Origin: Planotetraspora kaengkrachanensis
Lineage (GTDB): Bacteria > Actinomycetota > Actinomycetes > Streptosporangiales > Streptosporangiaceae
NCBI RefSeq assembly: GCF_016862895.1
Contig: NZ_BONV01000008.1
Location: 1 to 64,000 of the forward strand
Direction: 5' to 3'
Length of the DNA stretch: 64,000 nt
Shown here: positions 15,664 through 42,837 of the stretch, one piece after another
Position numbering within the stretch: position 1 is the first letter of the stretch
How the letters are laid out: every line of letters begins with the position of its first letter
The notes under the pieces: generated by a model
What the model was told of the DNA's origin: nothing
Database searches by the model: none
Seen by the model: the letters and a program-made list of their open reading frames with translations, nothing else
Made by a program: the position numbers and the translations under genes

Positions 15664-15671
15664 ACCGCCGG

Positions 15672-15707
15672 CCGTGTGGTCAGCCGTGTGGTCAGCCGTG
15701 TGGTCAG
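15672..15707. repeat. Three perfect 12-bp tandem repeats
   Basis: CCGTGTGGTCAG occurs three times without a mismatch at 15672, 15684 and 15696. The last copy includes the stop codon of the ROK gene (complement of TCA at 15704-15706), so replication slippage may have changed the 3' end of this gene. Confidence 0.9.
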
Positions 15708-36916: not shown

Positions 36917-38215
36917 ATGCGCAAAACGACCCTCCTCCTGTCGGCCGTCCTGGCGCTCTCGACCGCCGCGCCCGCCGCGCCCGCCGGGGCGGCCACGCAC
37001 GGCGGCGGCCCCGGTCACGGTGCCGGGCTCGGCCGCCAGACCCTGCCCGCGAAAGACGGATGGGCTTCCGCCGGAACGGGGACGACCGGCGGGGCCGCGG
37101 CGCCGCCGGCGAACGTCCACACCGTCACCACCCGGTCGCAGCTCGCGGCGGCGCTCGCCGCTCCCGGCCCCCGGATCATCTACGTCAAAGGCCGCCTCGA
37201 CAGCGGGAAGAGCTGCGCCGACTACGCCACCGGCGGATACACGCTCGCGGGCTACCTAGCCGCCTACGACCCGGCCGTCTGGGGAAGGGACGCCGAGCCG
37301 TCCGGCCCCCTCGAAGAGGCCAGAGCCGCCTCGGCCGCCAACCAGACCGCGCACATCAAGCTGAAGGTGCCGTCGGACACCACGATCGTCGGGCTGCCCG
37401 GCGCGACCATCCGGCATCTCAACCTGCACGTCGACAACGCCGACAACGTCATCATCCGCAACATCCGGTTCGAGGACGCCGCCGACTGCTTCCCCCAGTG
37501 GGACCCCACGGACGGTGAGACCGGCAACTGGAACTCGCTCTACGACAACATCTCCGTGACCGGCTCGACGCACGTCTGGGTGGACCACAACACCTTCACC
37601 GACGGAACCAACCCCGACTCCGCCCAGCCGCTCAACTTCGGCCGGCCGTACCAGGTGCACGACGGCCAGACGGACATCACCAACGGCTCCGACTTCGTGA
37701 CCGTGTCATGGAACGAGTTCTCCGGCCACGACAAGACCATGCTGATCGGCTCGACGAACAACCCGGCGGCCGATGCCGGGAAGCTCAGCGTGACCGTGCA
37801 CCACAACCACTTCTCCGACACGCTCCAGCGGCTGCCGCGCGTGCGGTTCGGGAAGGTCCACGTGTACGACAACTACTACGAGGTGCCCGACGCCGCCACG
37901 TTCGTGTACGCCATCGGCGTCGGCGTGCAGTCCCAGATCGTCGCGGAGAACAACTACTTCCGGCTGAGTCGCGACGTCGACCCGGCGGGGCTGCTCTACG
38001 ACTGGGGCGGCACCACCCTCACCGCCCGCGGCAACCTGCTGCGCGTCGGCGGGAAGGAACGGCCGATCGACCTGGTCGGCGTCTACAACGCGGCCCACGA
38101 CCCCGATCTCGGCGCCGATGCCGGGTGGACGCCGACGCTGCACACCCGGATCGATCCCGCGAGCGCCGTCAGACGCGAGGTGTCCCGCCATGCCGGCGCC
38201 GGCCACCTCCCCTAA
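36917..38215 (+). CDS. Secreted pectate lyase (polysaccharide lyase family 1)
   Basis: 432 residues. A Sec signal peptide is visible (RKTTLLLSAVLALSTAAPAA, cleavage near AGA-AT). The parallel beta-helix family 1 signatures are VWVDHNTFTDG, the NGSDFVTVSWNEFSGHDKTMLIG region (in parts) and LPRVRFGKVHVYDNYYE (with the catalytic Arg region). It cleaves polygalacturonate by beta-elimination outside the cell, giving unsaturated oligouronides for the importer. Downstream of kdgD in the same direction, so probably induced with it. A shorter, divergent N-terminal insert precedes the first helix turns. Confidence 0.92.
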   Translation: MRKTTLLLSAVLALSTAAPAAPAGAATHGGGPGHGAGLGRQTLPAKDGWASAGTGTTGGAAAPPANVHTVTTRSQLAAALAAPGPRIIYVKGRLDSGKSCADYATGGYTLAGYLAAYDPAVWGRDAEPSGPLEEARAASAANQTAHIKLKVPSDTTIVGLPGATIRHLNLHVDNADNVIIRNIRFEDAADCFPQWDPTDGETGNWNSLYDNISVTGSTHVWVDHNTFTDGTNPDSAQPLNFGRPYQVHDGQTDITNGSDFVTVSWNEFSGHDKTMLIGSTNNPAADAGKLSVTVHHNHFSDTLQRLPRVRFGKVHVYDNYYEVPDAATFVYAIGVGVQSQIVAENNYFRLSRDVDPAGLLYDWGGTTLTARGNLLRVGGKERPIDLVGVYNAAHDPDLGADAGWTPTLHTRIDPASAVRREVSRHAGAGHLP

Positions 38216-38233
38216 CCCCCGGCCCCCTGGGTG

Positions 38234-38305
38234 TGATCACCTCACCCTGGGGGGCTGATCACCACATCCTCGGGGTTGATCACCACATCCTCGCGGGGTG
38301 ATCAC
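38234..38305. repeat. Short-period TGATCAC repeats
   Basis: TGATCAC occurs at 38234, 38256, 38277 and 38299, i.e. every 21-22 bp, with similar flanks (a G-run before, ACATCCTC-like after the second and third copies). It lies directly after the pectate lyase gene and leads into the 53-bp array. Confidence 0.8.
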
Positions 38306-38316
38306 TCACCCTCGGG

Positions 38317-38433
38317 GTGATCATGCACAGGTTCGGGCTCGCCCGCCCCTACCTGCGGATTCATGAAGTGTGATCATGCACGGATTCGGAAGAACGCCCG
38401 TTGACCTGCGCCGTCAGTCACCGTGATCATGCA
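38317..38433 (-). repeat. 53-bp repeat array, minus-oriented half
   Basis: The core GTGATCATGCA occurs at 38317, 38370 and 38423, exactly 53 bp apart. It is the reverse complement of the core in the neighbouring array. On the minus strand the sequence before each core reads CGAATCCG or CGAACCTG. The remaining unit sequence is variable. Confidence 0.9.
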
Positions 38434-38472
38434 TCAGGACAGCCCCGCTCGCGACCTTCCCCGTCACATGCA

Positions 38473-38737
38473 TGCATGATCACGAACCGAGATCGCGCCG
38501 GCCAGGTGGCAACTCGGCGAATCCGTGCATGATCACGCGCGCGAGAGGCGCTGGCCAGACCCGCATTGCGCGAATCTGTGCATGATCACGAGCACTCGAG
38601 GCACAGGTCGGGCCCGCAGCGTGCGAGCTCGTGCATGATCACACACAAGTGGGGCGCTGGTCGGGCCCGCACGGTGCGAACGCGTGCATGATCACGAACA
38701 CGCGAGGCTGTGTGAATGGGTGCGCGATCACACCCCA
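38473..38737 (+). repeat. 53-bp repeat array, plus-oriented half
   Basis: The core TGCATGATCAC occurs at 38473, 38526, 38579, 38632 and 38685, every 53 bp without deviation. Beyond the core the units share a partial consensus (GAGGC-C-GG-CGGGCCCGCA and GTGCGAA), so this is a degenerate tandem repeat, not a set of unrelated spacers. The last unit decays. Together with the minus-oriented half it fills the 587-bp gap between pectate lyase and the GH2 gene; no coding sequence is supported there. Confidence 0.9.
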
Positions 38738-38772
38738 GGGGATCTTGACAACGGCTGGTCATATCGGCAGAT

Positions 38773-38786
38773 TGACAACGTTGTCA
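38773..38786. promoter_or_regulatory. Perfect 14-bp palindrome, LacI-type operator
   Basis: TGACAACGTTGTCA with a central CG, as in LacI/GalR-family operators. It overlaps a TTGACA hexamer and lies 16 bp before the GH2 start codon. A further TTGACA with a TCATAT about 13 bp downstream is at 38745. No LacI-family gene is in the window. Confidence 0.6.
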
Positions 38787-38802
38787 TCCCGTGGGAGTCA
38801 TG

Positions 38803-41800
38803 ATGCCCGAGTTGTCACCCGTGTCACGCCGCACCTTTCTGTCGGCCGGTGCCACCCTTCTCGCCTCGTTCGGCGTGGCCGCGACCCTGCCGGACGCCGC
38901 CCATGCCGCGTCCGCCTCACCCACCGGGCCCACGCCCGGATCGCCGGGGGCCGACCTCGCCCGCCACCGGCCGGTAACGGTGTCGTCCACGGACTACGCC
39001 CCGACGCCGGGCGCCTTCGCCGTGGACGGGCTGCCGCAGGTCGGCGTGCGCGGCAGCGGCTGGCGGGCCGCCCAGGGCGATCCGCAGTGGATCTCGATCG
39101 ACCTTCAGGCGCCGTGCCACGTCGAGGCCGTCACCCTGGTCTTCGAGGCGACCCTCGAAGACCAGCCGTTCGACGGGAACTACTCCGACACCGACGGCGA
39201 CGAGATCCGGTCGAGCGCCGCCGTCGCCTACCGGCTCGAGGTCTCGTCCGACGGCCGCGCCTGGCGCACGGTCCACGAGACGGCCGACGGCCGGGGCGGG
39301 GTCGAGGAGATCACGCTGACCGAGCCTGTCGTCGCCCGGTGGATCCGCATGACCGCGACCAAACGCTCCAACAGCAACCCGGTGGGCCTCAACGGCTTCC
39401 AGGTGTACGGCACGGCCACCGGGCACCGGCCGCCCGCGCGCGGCTGGACCGACTGGAGCGGCGGCGACCGGCCGGCGCCCGCGCTCACCGTCGCCGCCGA
39501 CGGCACGGTGCCGCTGGAGTCGGGCTGGTCGCTCACCATGGACGACTTCGCCGGCACAGACGACGGCGCCGTCCTGTCCGCAAGAGGCGTCGACGTCCGG
39601 TCCTGGCTGCCCGCGACGGTCCCCGGCACGGTCCTCGGGGCGCTCGTCGACCAGGGCCACCTGCCCGATCCGGTGTCCGGCTACAACAACATGCAGATCC
39701 CTGAGGCCCTGTCGCGCCACTCCTGGTGGTACCGGCGGCCGTTGCGGCTGCCGAAGGGGCTCGACACCTCGGCCGGCCGGCGGATCTGGCTCGAGTTCGA
39801 CGGGGTCAACCACGAGGCGACGACCTGGGTGAACGGCGTCCAGGTCGGCACCGTGACGCACCCGTTCGCCCGAGCGGCGTTCGACGTCACGGACGCCCTT
39901 CGGGGCCGCGTGGAGCACGTCGTCGCGGTCCGCGTCACCCCGATGCCGCATCCCGGCACGCCGGGCGACAAGGGCGCGGACGGCAACACGTTCCTGCAGT
40001 CCGCCCACCACTACCTCGACGCGCCGACGTACCTCGCGGTGTCGGGGTGGGACTGGATGCCCGCCGTGCGCGACCGGGTCACGGGCATCTGGAACCACGT
40101 CAGGCTGCGCAGCACGGGCGTGGCCGTCATCGGCGACCCGCACGTCACGACCGCGCTGCCCGGCCTGCCCGACACGCGCACGGCCGAGGTCACCGTCGCC
40201 GTGCCCGTGCGCAACGTGGGGAGCACGACGACCGCCGTGACGGTGCGGGCGTCCTTCGGCAAGGTCGACGTCCGTACGACGGTGACCGTCCCCGCAGGCG
40301 AGACCGTCACGGTGACGTTCTCGCCGGAGTCGTTCGCCGCGCTCAGGCTGAGGAACCCCGAGCTCTGGTGGCCGAACGGCTACGGTGACCCTCACCTGCA
40401 CGACCTGCACGTCACGGCGACCGTGCGCGGCGAGGTCAGCGACCGGCGCGACCTCCGGTTCGGTATCCGCGAGTTCGCCTACGACTGGGACCAGCCCATC
40501 GTCGTGTCGCCGCCGGGGAAGCCGCCGCTGGAGTTCACCGACGGCCGCGCGCCGCAGACGGTCACGTTCGACCGGCAGCACGCCCGGCATGTCCGCATCC
40601 AGGCCGGTAAGCGCGCGACCGGCTGGGGAGTGTCGATGTGGTCCCTGTCGGTGGCGGACGGGGACGGCGCGGACCTGGCCCTTCGCAAGACGGCCACGGC
40701 CTCCTCGACGGACGGTAACGGGCCGGGCAACGCCGTCGACGGCGACGCCGGGACCCGCTGGGCGTCCGCGTACCAGGACGACCAATGGATCCAGGTCGAC
40801 CTCGGCGCCGCGGTGGACTTCGACCGGGTGACCATCGTGTGGGAGCAGGCGTACGCACTGGACTACCGCGTGCAGGTCTCCGCGGACGGCGACGCCTGGA
40901 CCGACGTGAAGTCGGTGACGAACGACACCCCGATCGGCAACACCGCGGTCCAGGTCGAGACGTTCCCGCCGCAGACCGCGCGCCATGTGCGCATCCAGGC
41001 CGGCAAGCGCGCGAGCCAGTGGGGCGTCTCGATGTGGACGCTCTCGGTGCAGCGGCAGGCCGACCCGACCGTCGACCTGGCACTGAACAAGACCGCGACC
41101 TCGTCCACGTCGGAGAACGACACCAACGTGGCCGGCAACGCCGTGGACGGCAATCCGCGCACCCGCTGGGCGTCGGCGTACCAGGACGACCAGTGGATCC
41201 AGGTCGACCTCGGCGCCCCGGTCGACTTCGACCAGGTCACCATCGCCTGGGAGCAGGCGTACGCCCGCGACTTCGTCATCCAGGTCTCCGACGACGGGGA
41301 CAGGTGGACCGACGTGAAGTCGGTGAACAACGCCGTCCGCCAGCTGAAGATCAGCGTGAACGGCGTGCCGGTGTTCTGCCGGGGCGGCAACTGGGGCTGG
41401 GACGAGCTGCTGCGCCGGGTGCTTCCGCACCGGCTGGCGGACACCGTCGAGATGCACCGCGACATGAACTTCACGATGATCCGCAACTGGCTGGGCAGCA
41501 GCAACCGGGAGGAGCTCTACCAGGCCTGCGACGAGCAGGGCATCCTCGTGTGGAACGACTTCTGGCAGGCGGGGCAGTTCCTGCCGAACCCGCCCGGCTA
41601 CGTCGACATCGCCGCCGACACGATCCGGCGCTTCCGGCACCATCCGAGCATCGTGGTGTGGTGCGGCGCCAACGAGGGCGACCCGCCCCCGATCGTCGAC
41701 GCGGGGCTGAAGCAGGCGGTCGCCGACTTGCACCCCGAGATCCTCTACATCCCGAACTCCGCGGGCGGCATCGTCAGCGGCCACGGGCCGTACCGCTGGA

Positions 41801-42837
41801 TCGACCCGCCGGCCTACAACGACAAGAACACCTACGACACGGGCGCCTTCGGCTTCCACACCGAGATCGGCATGCCGGTCGTCCCGGTGGTGGAGAGCAT
41901 GCGCAACCTCGTCGGCGACGAGCCCGGCTGGCCGATCGGCGAGGTGTGGAACTACCACGACTGGTCGACCATCGGGAACCAGCACACCGACACCTACCTG
42001 GCCGCGATCGACGACCGGCTCGGCGCATCCGCCTCGCTCGAGGAGTTCGCCACGCGGGCGCAGTTCGTCAACTACGAGAGTCACCGCGCCATGTTCGAGG
42101 CGTGGAACGCCAACCTGTGGCAGGACGCAACCGCCCTGCTGCTGTGGATGTCGCATCCCGCCTGGCACAGCACGGTGTGGCAGACGTACGACTACGACCT
42201 TGACGTGAACGGCGCCTACTACGGCGCGCGCAAGGGCTGCGAGCCGTTGCACGTGCAGGCCGACCCCGGCACGTGGCAGGTCCGCGTCGTGAACCACACG
42301 ACCGCGGCGCTCACCGGCGCCACGGTCACCGCGAGGCTCTACGACCTGGACGGCAGGCAGCTGGGCAAGGCCCAGAGCGGGCGGGTGGACGTCGGCACGT
42401 CGTCGACGTCGGCCGTCTTCACGCTCGCCGCGCCGGACGGGGTCCCGCTGCACCTGGTCCGCCTCGAACTGCGCGACGGCCGCGACCGTCTGCTGTCGGA
42501 GAACACCTACTGGCGGTACGAGCAGGCACAGGACATGCGGGCGCTCACCGGCATGCCGCGCACCCGCCTGTCGGTGTCGGCCACGGGTCCGCGCTCGTCC
42601 GGCGGGCGTGACGCGCTCACCGCGACGGTCGCCAACCGGGGCCGCGCGGTCGCCGCTCTGGTCCGGCTGAGCGTGCGCGACTCCCACGGCGACCGGGTGC
42701 TGCCCGCGCGGTACGACGACAACTACTTCTGGCTGCTGCCCGGCGAGACGCGCCGGGTGGAGGTCTCGTGGCCGTCACACGCGGACCGGCATGGGATCCA
42801 CGTGTCGGCGCACGCCTACAACTCGGCCGCCGGCTAA
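38803..42837 (+). CDS. Tat-exported GH2 glycosidase with discoidin (F5/8 type C) domains
   Basis: 1344 residues from ATG 38803 (GGGAG five bases upstream; GTG 38791 and ATG 38800 also open). The twin-arginine signal is SRRTFLSAG. Domains: N-terminal discoidin/CBM32-like (about 45-210), GH2 sugar-binding sandwich (230-400, with WVNGVQVG), beta-sandwich to about 590, inserted discoidin repeats (593-844), then the TIM barrel with acid/base Glu958 in CGANEG and nucleophile Glu1021 in HTEIGMP. It resembles exo-beta-glucosaminidase/beta-mannosidase-type GH2 enzymes (GWDWMPAVRDRVTGIW). C-terminal beta domains follow. It should trim side chains or beta-linked oligosaccharides outside the cell; its substrate is not certain. 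Confidence 0.85.
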   Translation: MPELSPVSRRTFLSAGATLLASFGVAATLPDAAHAASASPTGPTPGSPGADLARHRPVTVSSTDYAPTPGAFAVDGLPQVGVRGSGWRAAQGDPQWISIDLQAPCHVEAVTLVFEATLEDQPFDGNYSDTDGDEIRSSAAVAYRLEVSSDGRAWRTVHETADGRGGVEEITLTEPVVARWIRMTATKRSNSNPVGLNGFQVYGTATGHRPPARGWTDWSGGDRPAPALTVAADGTVPLESGWSLTMDDFAGTDDGAVLSARGVDVRSWLPATVPGTVLGALVDQGHLPDPVSGYNNMQIPEALSRHSWWYRRPLRLPKGLDTSAGRRIWLEFDGVNHEATTWVNGVQVGTVTHPFARAAFDVTDALRGRVEHVVAVRVTPMPHPGTPGDKGADGNTFLQSAHHYLDAPTYLAVSGWDWMPAVRDRVTGIWNHVRLRSTGVAVIGDPHVTTALPGLPDTRTAEVTVAVPVRNVGSTTTAVTVRASFGKVDVRTTVTVPAGETVTVTFSPESFAALRLRNPELWWPNGYGDPHLHDLHVTATVRGEVSDRRDLRFGIREFAYDWDQPIVVSPPGKPPLEFTDGRAPQTVTFDRQHARHVRIQAGKRATGWGVSMWSLSVADGDGADLALRKTATASSTDGNGPGNAVDGDAGTRWASAYQDDQWIQVDLGAAVDFDRVTIVWEQAYALDYRVQVSADGDAWTDVKSVTNDTPIGNTAVQVETFPPQTARHVRIQAGKRASQWGVSMWTLSVQRQADPTVDLALNKTATSSTSENDTNVAGNAVDGNPRTRWASAYQDDQWIQVDLGAPVDFDQVTIAWEQAYARDFVIQVSDDGDRWTDVKSVNNAVRQLKISVNGVPVFCRGGNWGWDELLRRVLPHRLADTVEMHRDMNFTMIRNWLGSSNREELYQACDEQGILVWNDFWQAGQFLPNPPGYVDIAADTIRRFRHHPSIVVWCGANEGDPPPIVDAGLKQAVADLHPEILYIPNSAGGIVSGHGPYRWIDPPAYNDKNTYDTGAFGFHTEIGMPVVPVVESMRNLVGDEPGWPIGEVWNYHDWSTIGNQHTDTYLAAIDDRLGASASLEEFATRAQFVNYESHRAMFEAWNANLWQDATALLLWMSHPAWHSTVWQTYDYDLDVNGAYYGARKGCEPLHVQADPGTWQVRVVNHTTAALTGATVTARLYDLDGRQLGKAQSGRVDVGTSSTSAVFTLAAPDGVPLHLVRLELRDGRDRLLSENTYWRYEQAQDMRALTGMPRTRLSVSATGPRSSGGRDALTATVANRGRAVAALVRLSVRDSHGDRVLPARYDDNYFWLLPGETRRVEVSWPSHADRHGIHVSAHAYNSAAG

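What the first reader, a model, noticed from the sequence alone, without database searches (positions are those of the whole stretch)
38317..38737. Head-to-head arrays of 53-bp repeats with the core TGCATGATCAC
Three cores on the minus strand (38317, 38370, 38423) face five on the plus strand (38473, 38526, 38579, 38632, 38685), each exactly 53 bp apart. The sequence CGAATCCG or a variant precedes the core in several units of both orientations. Between cores the units share only a partial consensus, so it is not a CRISPR, and no protein is encoded. The strict 53-bp phase (about five helical turns) places the cores on one DNA face. It could load a DNA-binding protein cooperatively, shape the nucleoid, or be a structured RNA.
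Basis: seen in the sequence. Interest (0 to 1): 0.78.

Follow-up and report, generated by a model that had tools for sequence, protein, structure and literature searches.

The report
Outward-pointing 53-bp DNA-binding-site arrays
A spore-forming soil bacterium and some of its relatives carry many short DNA arrays between genes, each a row of nearly identical 11-letter words spaced 53 letters apart and pointing outward from a centre, probably docking sites for an unknown DNA-binding protein.

Summary
Eight exact TGCATGATCAC cores lie at the stated places, 53 bp apart within each arm; the arms point away from each other (<<< >>>). The 11-mer occurs 786 times in this genome, 0 for the reversed control. 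All five held genomes of the genus carry arrays; variants occur in at least five genera of the family. A 394-genome class sample gave one further single hit, probably unrelated.

Cores are conserved in place while the 42-nt spacers change fast. Arms under 300 bp apart were outward in 56 of 56 pairs. P. thailandica and strain A-T 1434 each have their own version of the word beside the core.

Best explanation: binding-site arrays for an unidentified, lineage-specific DNA-binding protein forming a two-armed complex between genes, rarely in divergent promoter regions. Protein binding is inferred from conservation and lack of RNA signal; the boundary role is a weaker inference. REP/BIME-RAYT, CRISPR and structured-RNA readings failed tests. 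Terminator substitution has two anecdotes, but a systematic test did not support it. Long-range alternation of arm direction held on four contigs (24 to 6) but not on further, less complete listings (9 to 11).

The parts
38317..38433 (-). Left arm: three exact cores (38317, 38370, 38423) at 53-bp phase, pointing left
   Evidence: sequence
38434..38472 (.). Centre of the array, 39 bp between the innermost cores; little conserved sequence at this position across arrays
38473..38695 (+). Right arm: five exact cores (38473, 38526, 38579, 38632, 38685) at 53-bp phase, pointing right
38721..38731 (+). Degenerate core TGCGCGATCAC, out of phase (36 bp after the last core)
   Evidence: 2 mismatches
38229..38323 (-). 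Outer extension of the left arm: TGATCAC-like steps at about 21 bp
   Evidence: TRF period 21, 4.5 copies
36917..38215 (+). Upstream gene, pectate lyase (PF00544); its stop lies 13 bp before the 21-bp extension
38803..42837 (+). Downstream gene, glycoside hydrolase family 2-like protein with F5/8 type C domains (start codon uncertain)

Best explanation
Each array is a row of binding sites for one lineage-specific, sequence-specific DNA-binding protein, which I could not identify. One unit is TGCATGATCAC plus the preceding word CGAAnCTG and a second motif, CAGGTCRG, that starts about 14 nt after the core. Units repeat almost always at 53 bp in two arms that point away from a centre, so the protein would assemble a two-armed, dyad-symmetric complex. 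SHOWN: the sites, the phase, the outward rule for close arms, sharing of many sites between species, core conservation, the species-wide change of the neighbouring word, and rarity in divergent promoter regions. INFERRED: that a protein binds; that the arms act together; and that the complex marks a boundary between transcription units (insulating the next promoter from the previous gene, or blocking or anchoring DNA movement). I put protein-bound DNA arrays at about 0.8 and the boundary role at about 0.3 (lowered from 0.35 after the recount).
For: Copy number: 786 exact 11-mers, control 0. Phase: (323 of 397 distances at 53 bp; a few loci overlap, so slightly double-counted). Orientation: arm pairs under 300 bp apart were '-+' in 56 of 56. 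Shared sites: 11 of 11 arrays in conserved neighbour gene pairs occur in both G000 and P. mira; 143 of 166 orthologous 3' ends keep a core (both directions counted, so not independent). Constraint: G000 vs P. mira, 12 of 17 sites located, core identity 0.947, spacers 0.661; four-fold sites 0.80. Word beside the core: CGAAcTTC in thailandica (110 units; last three positions 94-98% TTC), GGGAAcCTG in A-T 1434 (50 units), CGAAcCTG in mira, silvatica and G000 (85, 80, 50 units), although several thailandica and A-T 1434 sites are orthologous to sites in other species. DNA rather than RNA: no pair covariation; arms beside 5' ends carry the same outer flank. Placement: arrays in 13 of 147 convergent, 31 of 526 tandem and 3 of 240 divergent intergenic regions (convergent vs divergent p 0.0004); 119 of 174 arms face a gene 3' end (binomial p 4.6e-12 against 270/640). 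Local exchange: near-identical spacers are mostly tandem neighbours or mirror copies in the two arms of one array, in L066 across about 1.8 kb. Alternation of single arms more than 3 kb apart: 24 to 6 on four contigs (p 0.0014).
Against: No binding protein found: ParB_N (PF02195) counts do not follow array presence. Arrays occupy only 13 of 147 convergent regions, so there is no general boundary need. The alternation did not hold in the capped listing of other G001 contigs (9 alternate, 11 same; only arms with three exact cores are seen there, so partners are missed); pooled it is 33 to 17, p 0.033. Split arrays with a gene inserted would also give it (silvatica L072 against thailandica L094). 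Arm pairs 300-5000 bp apart with genes between were 9 '-+', 4 '+-', 2 '--', 1 '++'. One array in G070 lies inside one open frame or an operon. Patchy presence (5 of 15 genomes of genus g79) means the system is dispensable. Spacers at sites shared between thailandica or A-T 1434 and other species are hardly more alike than chance (0.453 vs 0.428), which plain in-place substitution explains poorly. At least one P. mira array (59.5-60.5 kb of C1) has no counterpart in G000. Placement rests on my own simple gene caller.
Confidence: 0.55

Rival explanations
1. A non-autonomous transposable element family (MITE-like): a symmetric element with repeated transposase-binding ends that spread in the past and is now mostly fixed.
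For: In genus g79 the element is about 280 bp and many G202 copies align to the L213 copy over much or all of it at about 67-80% (62 matches in G202), with a distinct outermost unit TGCGACAAACTACAAGATCACG and a G-rich tail. At the L213 locus 11 of 13 fetched g79 genomes show no array (G226 was not readable by the script, G231 carries it). The window's own array is absent in P. thailandica and P. mira. The stop codon lies in the outermost core (distance exactly -4) in 20 of 119 arms, as insertion at gene ends could give.
Against: Sites are shared between species and some between genera. Cores are conserved in place far beyond four-fold sites. In Planotetraspora, mean spacer identity between different arrays equals the shuffle (0.364 vs 0.367 in G000), apart from a few high pairs (3 vs 0 in G000, 13 vs 3 in thailandica, 4 vs 1 in silvatica). 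Mu-transpos_C (PF09299) occurs in 3 of 12 array-bearing genomes searched, not in G000. Among the proteins printed between arms I saw no transposase by eye; one is a 67-aa HTH_17 protein in L066.
Confidence: 0.2
2. Protein-dependent, two-way transcription terminators: bound proteins block RNA polymerase at gene ends, replacing hairpin terminators.
For: Arms face 3' ends in 119 of 174 cases, 94 of them within -4 to 40 bp. At the window locus P. thailandica and P. mira have GC-rich hairpins instead of the array (by eye); at the g79 L213 locus several array-less relatives show hairpin-like inverted repeats (by eye). The gene side of arms is C-rich.
Against: Systematic test negative: of 23 orthologous ends lacking a core, 3 have a stem of 10 or more, against 28 of 256 controls (p 0.73; controls are orthologs of 300 sampled array-less ends). 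Stems of 10 or more at array ends: 11 of 211 vs 29 of 300 (p 0.068). Fold z-scores do not differ (p 0.31). 55 of 174 arms face a 5' end. P. silvatica (G004, inferred) has both hairpin and arm.
Confidence: 0.15
3. A structured or regulatory RNA family made of 53-nt units.
For: Units fold slightly better than shuffled ones (mean z -1.37 sense, -1.00 antisense, 80 units).
Against: No covariation in the proposed stem; no Rfam match near threshold; arms beside 5' and 3' ends have the same build.
Confidence: 0.04

Closest known systems
REP / BIME elements with RAYT (Y1) transposase
   Same: High-copy intergenic repeats in alternating orientations that bind host proteins (start of the abstract of PMC2817692, seen in the listing; placement near gene ends recalled)
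   Different: Units are not hairpins, the 53-bp phase is rigid, the spacers are free, and Y1_Tnp is absent from the array-rich G000, G003, G004, G078, G202, G231
matS/MatP and Noc- or SlmA-type chromosomal site sets (matS/MatP: start of the abstract of PMC3330122 in the listing; Noc and SlmA recalled)
   Same: Chromosome-wide sites of one DNA-binding protein that shape or protect the chromosome
   Different: Those are single dispersed sites (recalled); here sites come in phased multi-site arms with an outward rule
CTCF sites at animal domain borders (recalled)
   Same: Divergent clusters of directional sites
   Different: Different domain of life; no contact map and no protein here
Tn7/Mu-type transposon ends (recalled)
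   Same: Several directional binding sites per end, inverted between the two ends
   Different: No transposase seen between arms, many sites fixed between species

Membership tests
REP/BIME-RAYT | Associated Y1 (RAYT) transposase in the genome | tested here: not met
   PF01797: 0 matches in G000, G002, G003, G004, G078, G202, G231; present in 5 of 12 array-bearing and 5 of 8 other genomes searched
REP/BIME-RAYT | Imperfect palindromic (hairpin) unit | tested here: not met
   No covariation in the one candidate stem in 262 units
CRISPR | Near-identical repeats, unrelated spacers, one direction | tested here: not met
   Two outward arms; spacers share a CAGGTC motif and many are alignable between G000 and P. 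mira
CRISPR | cas genes | not tested
   No cas search was run
Tn7/Mu-like MITE | Mu-transpos_C transposase in bearer genomes | tested here: not met
   PF09299 absent from G000, G004, G078, G102, G053, G202, G231, G136, G209; one match each in G001, G002, G003 and G044
Tn7/Mu-like MITE | Target-site duplication at both ends | tested here: inconclusive
   Array-less relatives at one locus differ too much at the junctions to show one (by eye)
Rfam RNA families | Score above a family's gathering cut-off | tested here: not met
   Three weak matches in 37000-40000, far below cut-off, none inside the array
Intrinsic terminator | GC-rich stem-loop at array ends more often than elsewhere | tested here: not met
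   11 of 211 vs 29 of 300 with a stem of 10 or more
Nucleoid or boundary protein site set (matS/Noc-like) | A cognate DNA-binding protein | not testable with these tools
   No binding data; ParB_N counts do not correlate

The most novel reading that the evidence does not exclude
A bacterial directional boundary system: outward-pointing, 53-bp-phased site arrays at borders between transcription units are occupied by one lineage-specific protein, and arms of opposite direction pair over kilobases to tens of kilobases as loop anchors, much as divergent CTCF clusters mark animal domain borders. When the protein's specificity changed, the sites were rewritten across the genome. (Probability lowered from 0.15 because the alternation weakened.)
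Probability: 0.12. Interest if true: 0.93.

Novelty: new variant of a known kind. Interest (0 to 1): 0.72.

Why it matters
If the arrays are protein-bound boundaries, these cultivable bacteria offer a test of whether directional DNA sites organise a bacterial chromosome. The species-wide switch of the flanking word, with spacers changing faster than synonymous sites, is a chance to study how hundreds of sites follow one binding protein. My searches of the held library found no description in print, judged from titles in the listings only: core strings (89 papers, 20 listed; one Streptomyces ArgR paper, PMC5839063, holds such strings and was not opened), 53-bp repeat with actinobacteria (15 of 1,424 listed, none with the term '53-bp repeat'), Planotetraspora repeats (one paper, on Ms1 RNA), dispersed palindromic repeats and convergent genes (12 of 299 listed), Streptosporangiaceae intergenic repeat (none).

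Tried and rejected
Structured RNA: Rfam, mutual information and stem test, fold z: rejected. Phage or plasmid origin: viral contigs, plasmids and phages: no match. RAYT, ParB-like and Mu-like proteins as the partner: no fit with array presence. A partner gene missing in G002: looked only in the collinear part of one contig, no candidate. Genes within about 3.5 kb of two arrays in G070 and two in G215, read by eye without a family search: no clear candidate; a PucR-like regulator (recalled likeness) in L193 was not followed up. Loss of the system in G002: at 14 of 17 located sites core identity was 0.751 and regions were often shorter, but the 12 matched units still show constraint (core mismatch 0.045 per base, four-fold identity 0.86), and at the window locus G002 keeps four exact cores. 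I therefore call G002 reduced, not lost; my notebook entry says 'probably lost' and gives 13 sites for G003, where one search shows 12. Hairpin replacement: seen at two loci, not general. Helical phasing of the centre gap: weak. The 21-bp outer extension is not general. One search's weaker fold energy at array ends (p 8e-6) was set aside because composition and region length differ; the shuffle-corrected test gave p 0.31.

Rows dropped or limits: G003 C1 (7 alternate, 1 same) was left out of the alternation total because it is orthologous to G000 C1, and transitions under 3 kb were left out (with them 28 alternate, 7 same). The first alternation count (22 to 5) in my notebook came from a capped listing and overlaps the data. 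One search skipped spacers not exactly 42 nt; one search used only units with exact cores; one search dropped 8 arms at locus edges and counts four arms twice (L042 and L093 lie inside G003 C1).

Full report
OBSERVATION. The arms point away from a 39-bp centre. Outside the stated range lie a degenerate plus-strand core (38721-38731) and, on the left, a 21-bp-period stretch with TGATCAC-like steps (38229-38323). The array lies between the stop codon of a pectate lyase gene (38215) and the upstream region of a family-2 glycoside hydrolase gene.

SCALE. The 11-mer occurs 402 + 384 times in the own genome (8.77 Mb), 0 times for the reversed control. The exact two-core pattern occurs in 5 of 41 genomes, all of the window's genus, with 389, 652, 74, 367 and 445 matches and no control match. 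With TGATCAC at 53 bp, 38 of 297 family genomes match; the counts are large in the same five (560, 685, 147, 641 and 651 for G000 to G004) and G078 (414), small (1-8) elsewhere, and the control matches in one genome, G206. I therefore place the window in Planotetraspora; the species is not known. By equal contig lengths G003 is P. mira, G001 P. thailandica and G078 strain A-T 1434; G004 as P. silvatica and G002 as P. phitsanulokensis are inferred by elimination. With the looser core GCANGATCAC, 15 of 341 family genomes match: the five above, G078 (378), G102 (169), G202 (78), G053 (35), G231 (30), G136 (18), G209 (13), G215 (2), G070 (2) and G106 (1, probably chance); the control is 0 in every row. 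Within genus g79 only 5 of 15 genomes match. A triple GATCAC pattern matched 3 of 394 class genomes: G000, G136 and one hit in G641 that looks like an unrelated tandem repeat. A sequence-only model found matches in 27 of 200 family genomes, some of them single and weak; genus g64 (G069 4, G108 3, G131 1) may be a sixth bearer.

ANATOMY. Of 397 consecutive exact-core distances under 200 bp on one strand, 323 are 53 bp, 12 are 52, 6 are 54, 35 are 106, 4 are 159 and 17 are others. In core orientation a unit reads TGCATGATCAC-G ... gCgCAGGTCRG ... CGAAcCTG-TGCATGATCAC. Beyond the outermost core, on the gene side, lies a short C/G flank, often CCCCCC-TT-GG read from the gene. The inner flank is little conserved. 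A 13-bp centre gap is favoured, 18 of 85. In g79 and g48, arrays with both arms mostly have 3 + 3 cores; in g79 the outermost core is ACAAGATCAC in 23 of 38 arms, with the word TGCGACAAACT before it.

ORIENTATION AND PLACEMENT. Arms less than 300 bp apart are '-+' in 56 of 56 cases. Of 174 arms, 119 face a gene 3' end and 55 a 5' end; in 20 of the 119 the gene's TGA stop lies in the outermost core. Arrays lie in 13 of 147 convergent, 31 of 526 tandem and 3 of 240 divergent intergenic regions on four contigs. Between 300 and 5000 bp with genes between, arm pairs were 9 '-+', 4 '+-', 2 '--' and 1 '++'. Two array-flanked gene neighbourhoods (amidohydrolase- and xanthine-dehydrogenase-like; RelA-like; names by eye) recur across genera. 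Single arms more than 3 kb from the next alternate in direction 24 to 6 on four contigs of two genomes (p 0.0014). In the capped listing of the other G001 contigs, where only arms with three exact cores are seen, the count is 9 to 11; pooled 33 to 17, p 0.033. The alternation is therefore a lead, not a result.

EVOLUTION. In conserved neighbour pairs 11 of 11 arrays are shared by G000 and P. mira. At 12 located sites aligned core bases agree 94.7% and spacers 66.1%, while four-fold sites agree 80%. Of orthologous 3' ends of array-bearing genes, 143 of 166 keep a core. The word before the core differs between species: CGAAcTTC in thailandica, GGGAAcCTG in A-T 1434, CGAAcCTG in mira, silvatica and G000 (on the units fetched, not whole genomes), although several thailandica and A-T 1434 sites are orthologous to sites in the others. 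At those sites the spacers are hardly related: best identity 0.453 against 0.428 by chance, 46 comparisons. Near-identical spacers are mostly tandem neighbours or mirror copies in the other arm of the same array; between arrays there is a small excess over the shuffle at identity 0.76 or more (thailandica 13 vs 3 of 16,337 pairs; G000 3 vs 0; silvatica 4 vs 1; mira 1 vs 1; A-T 1434 0 vs 0). So sites persist, units turn over mainly locally, and the word follows something species-wide. A binding protein is the simplest such thing.

WINDOW LOCUS IN RELATIVES. G002 has the same gene pair with a shorter 1 + 3 array of exact cores. P. thailandica has the same gene pair without array and with a GC hairpin after the stop. 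P. mira lacks the array, has a long hairpin and another downstream gene. G004 has a hairpin and the left arm only, with another downstream gene (hairpins by eye). A similar contrast appears at one g79 locus. The systematic test does not support hairpin replacement: 3 of 23 against 28 of 256.

WHAT IT IS NOT. No RNA covariation, no Rfam match near threshold, no phage, plasmid or viral-contig match, no RAYT or Mu-type enzyme tracking the arrays, and ParB_N counts do not track them either.

MECHANISM. Shown: phase, outward rule for close arms, in-place core conservation, species-wide word change, rarity in divergent promoter regions. Inferred: a sequence-specific protein binds each unit; bound units contact each other at about five helical turns; the two arms act as one dyad; the complex marks a boundary between transcription units. 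A MITE origin in the deep past is compatible with this and would explain the alignable 280-bp form in g79.

LIMITS.

Noticed in passing
window 38229-38323: A 21-bp-period stretch of TGATCAC-like steps (about two helical turns) joined to the left arm; some other arms show 20-22-bp outer repeats by eye, but it is not general.
   Followed up: partly
window 38773-38786: Perfect 14-bp palindrome TGACAACGTTGTCA upstream of the glycoside hydrolase gene, also present in P. thailandica (L326) before the same gene; could be a sugar-regulator operator (inspection only).
   Followed up: no
L194:6049-6150: In G070 a three-core array lies inside a single open frame joining an ATP-grasp-like and a CoA-ligase-like part (names by eye), so it is either read through or marks a gene border within an operon.
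   Followed up: partly
L072:2114-3503 and L094:6842-7261: At an orthologous site P. silvatica has a UbiA-family gene (PF01040) between the two arms, whereas in P. thailandica the arms are adjacent.
   Followed up: partly
L066:2569-2772: A 67-aa HTH_17 protein (PF12728) is encoded between two outward arms in P. mira that share a mirror-copied spacer (0.86 in the variable columns); a possible DNA-binding lead.
   Followed up: partly
L321, L322, L323: Array-less g79 genomes G084, G155 and G221 carry what look like remnants of both outermost cores around a GC hairpin at the L213 locus (by eye).
   Followed up: no
window 15671-15707: A perfect 12-bp tandem repeat, 3.1 copies of GCCGTGTGGTCA.
   Followed up: no
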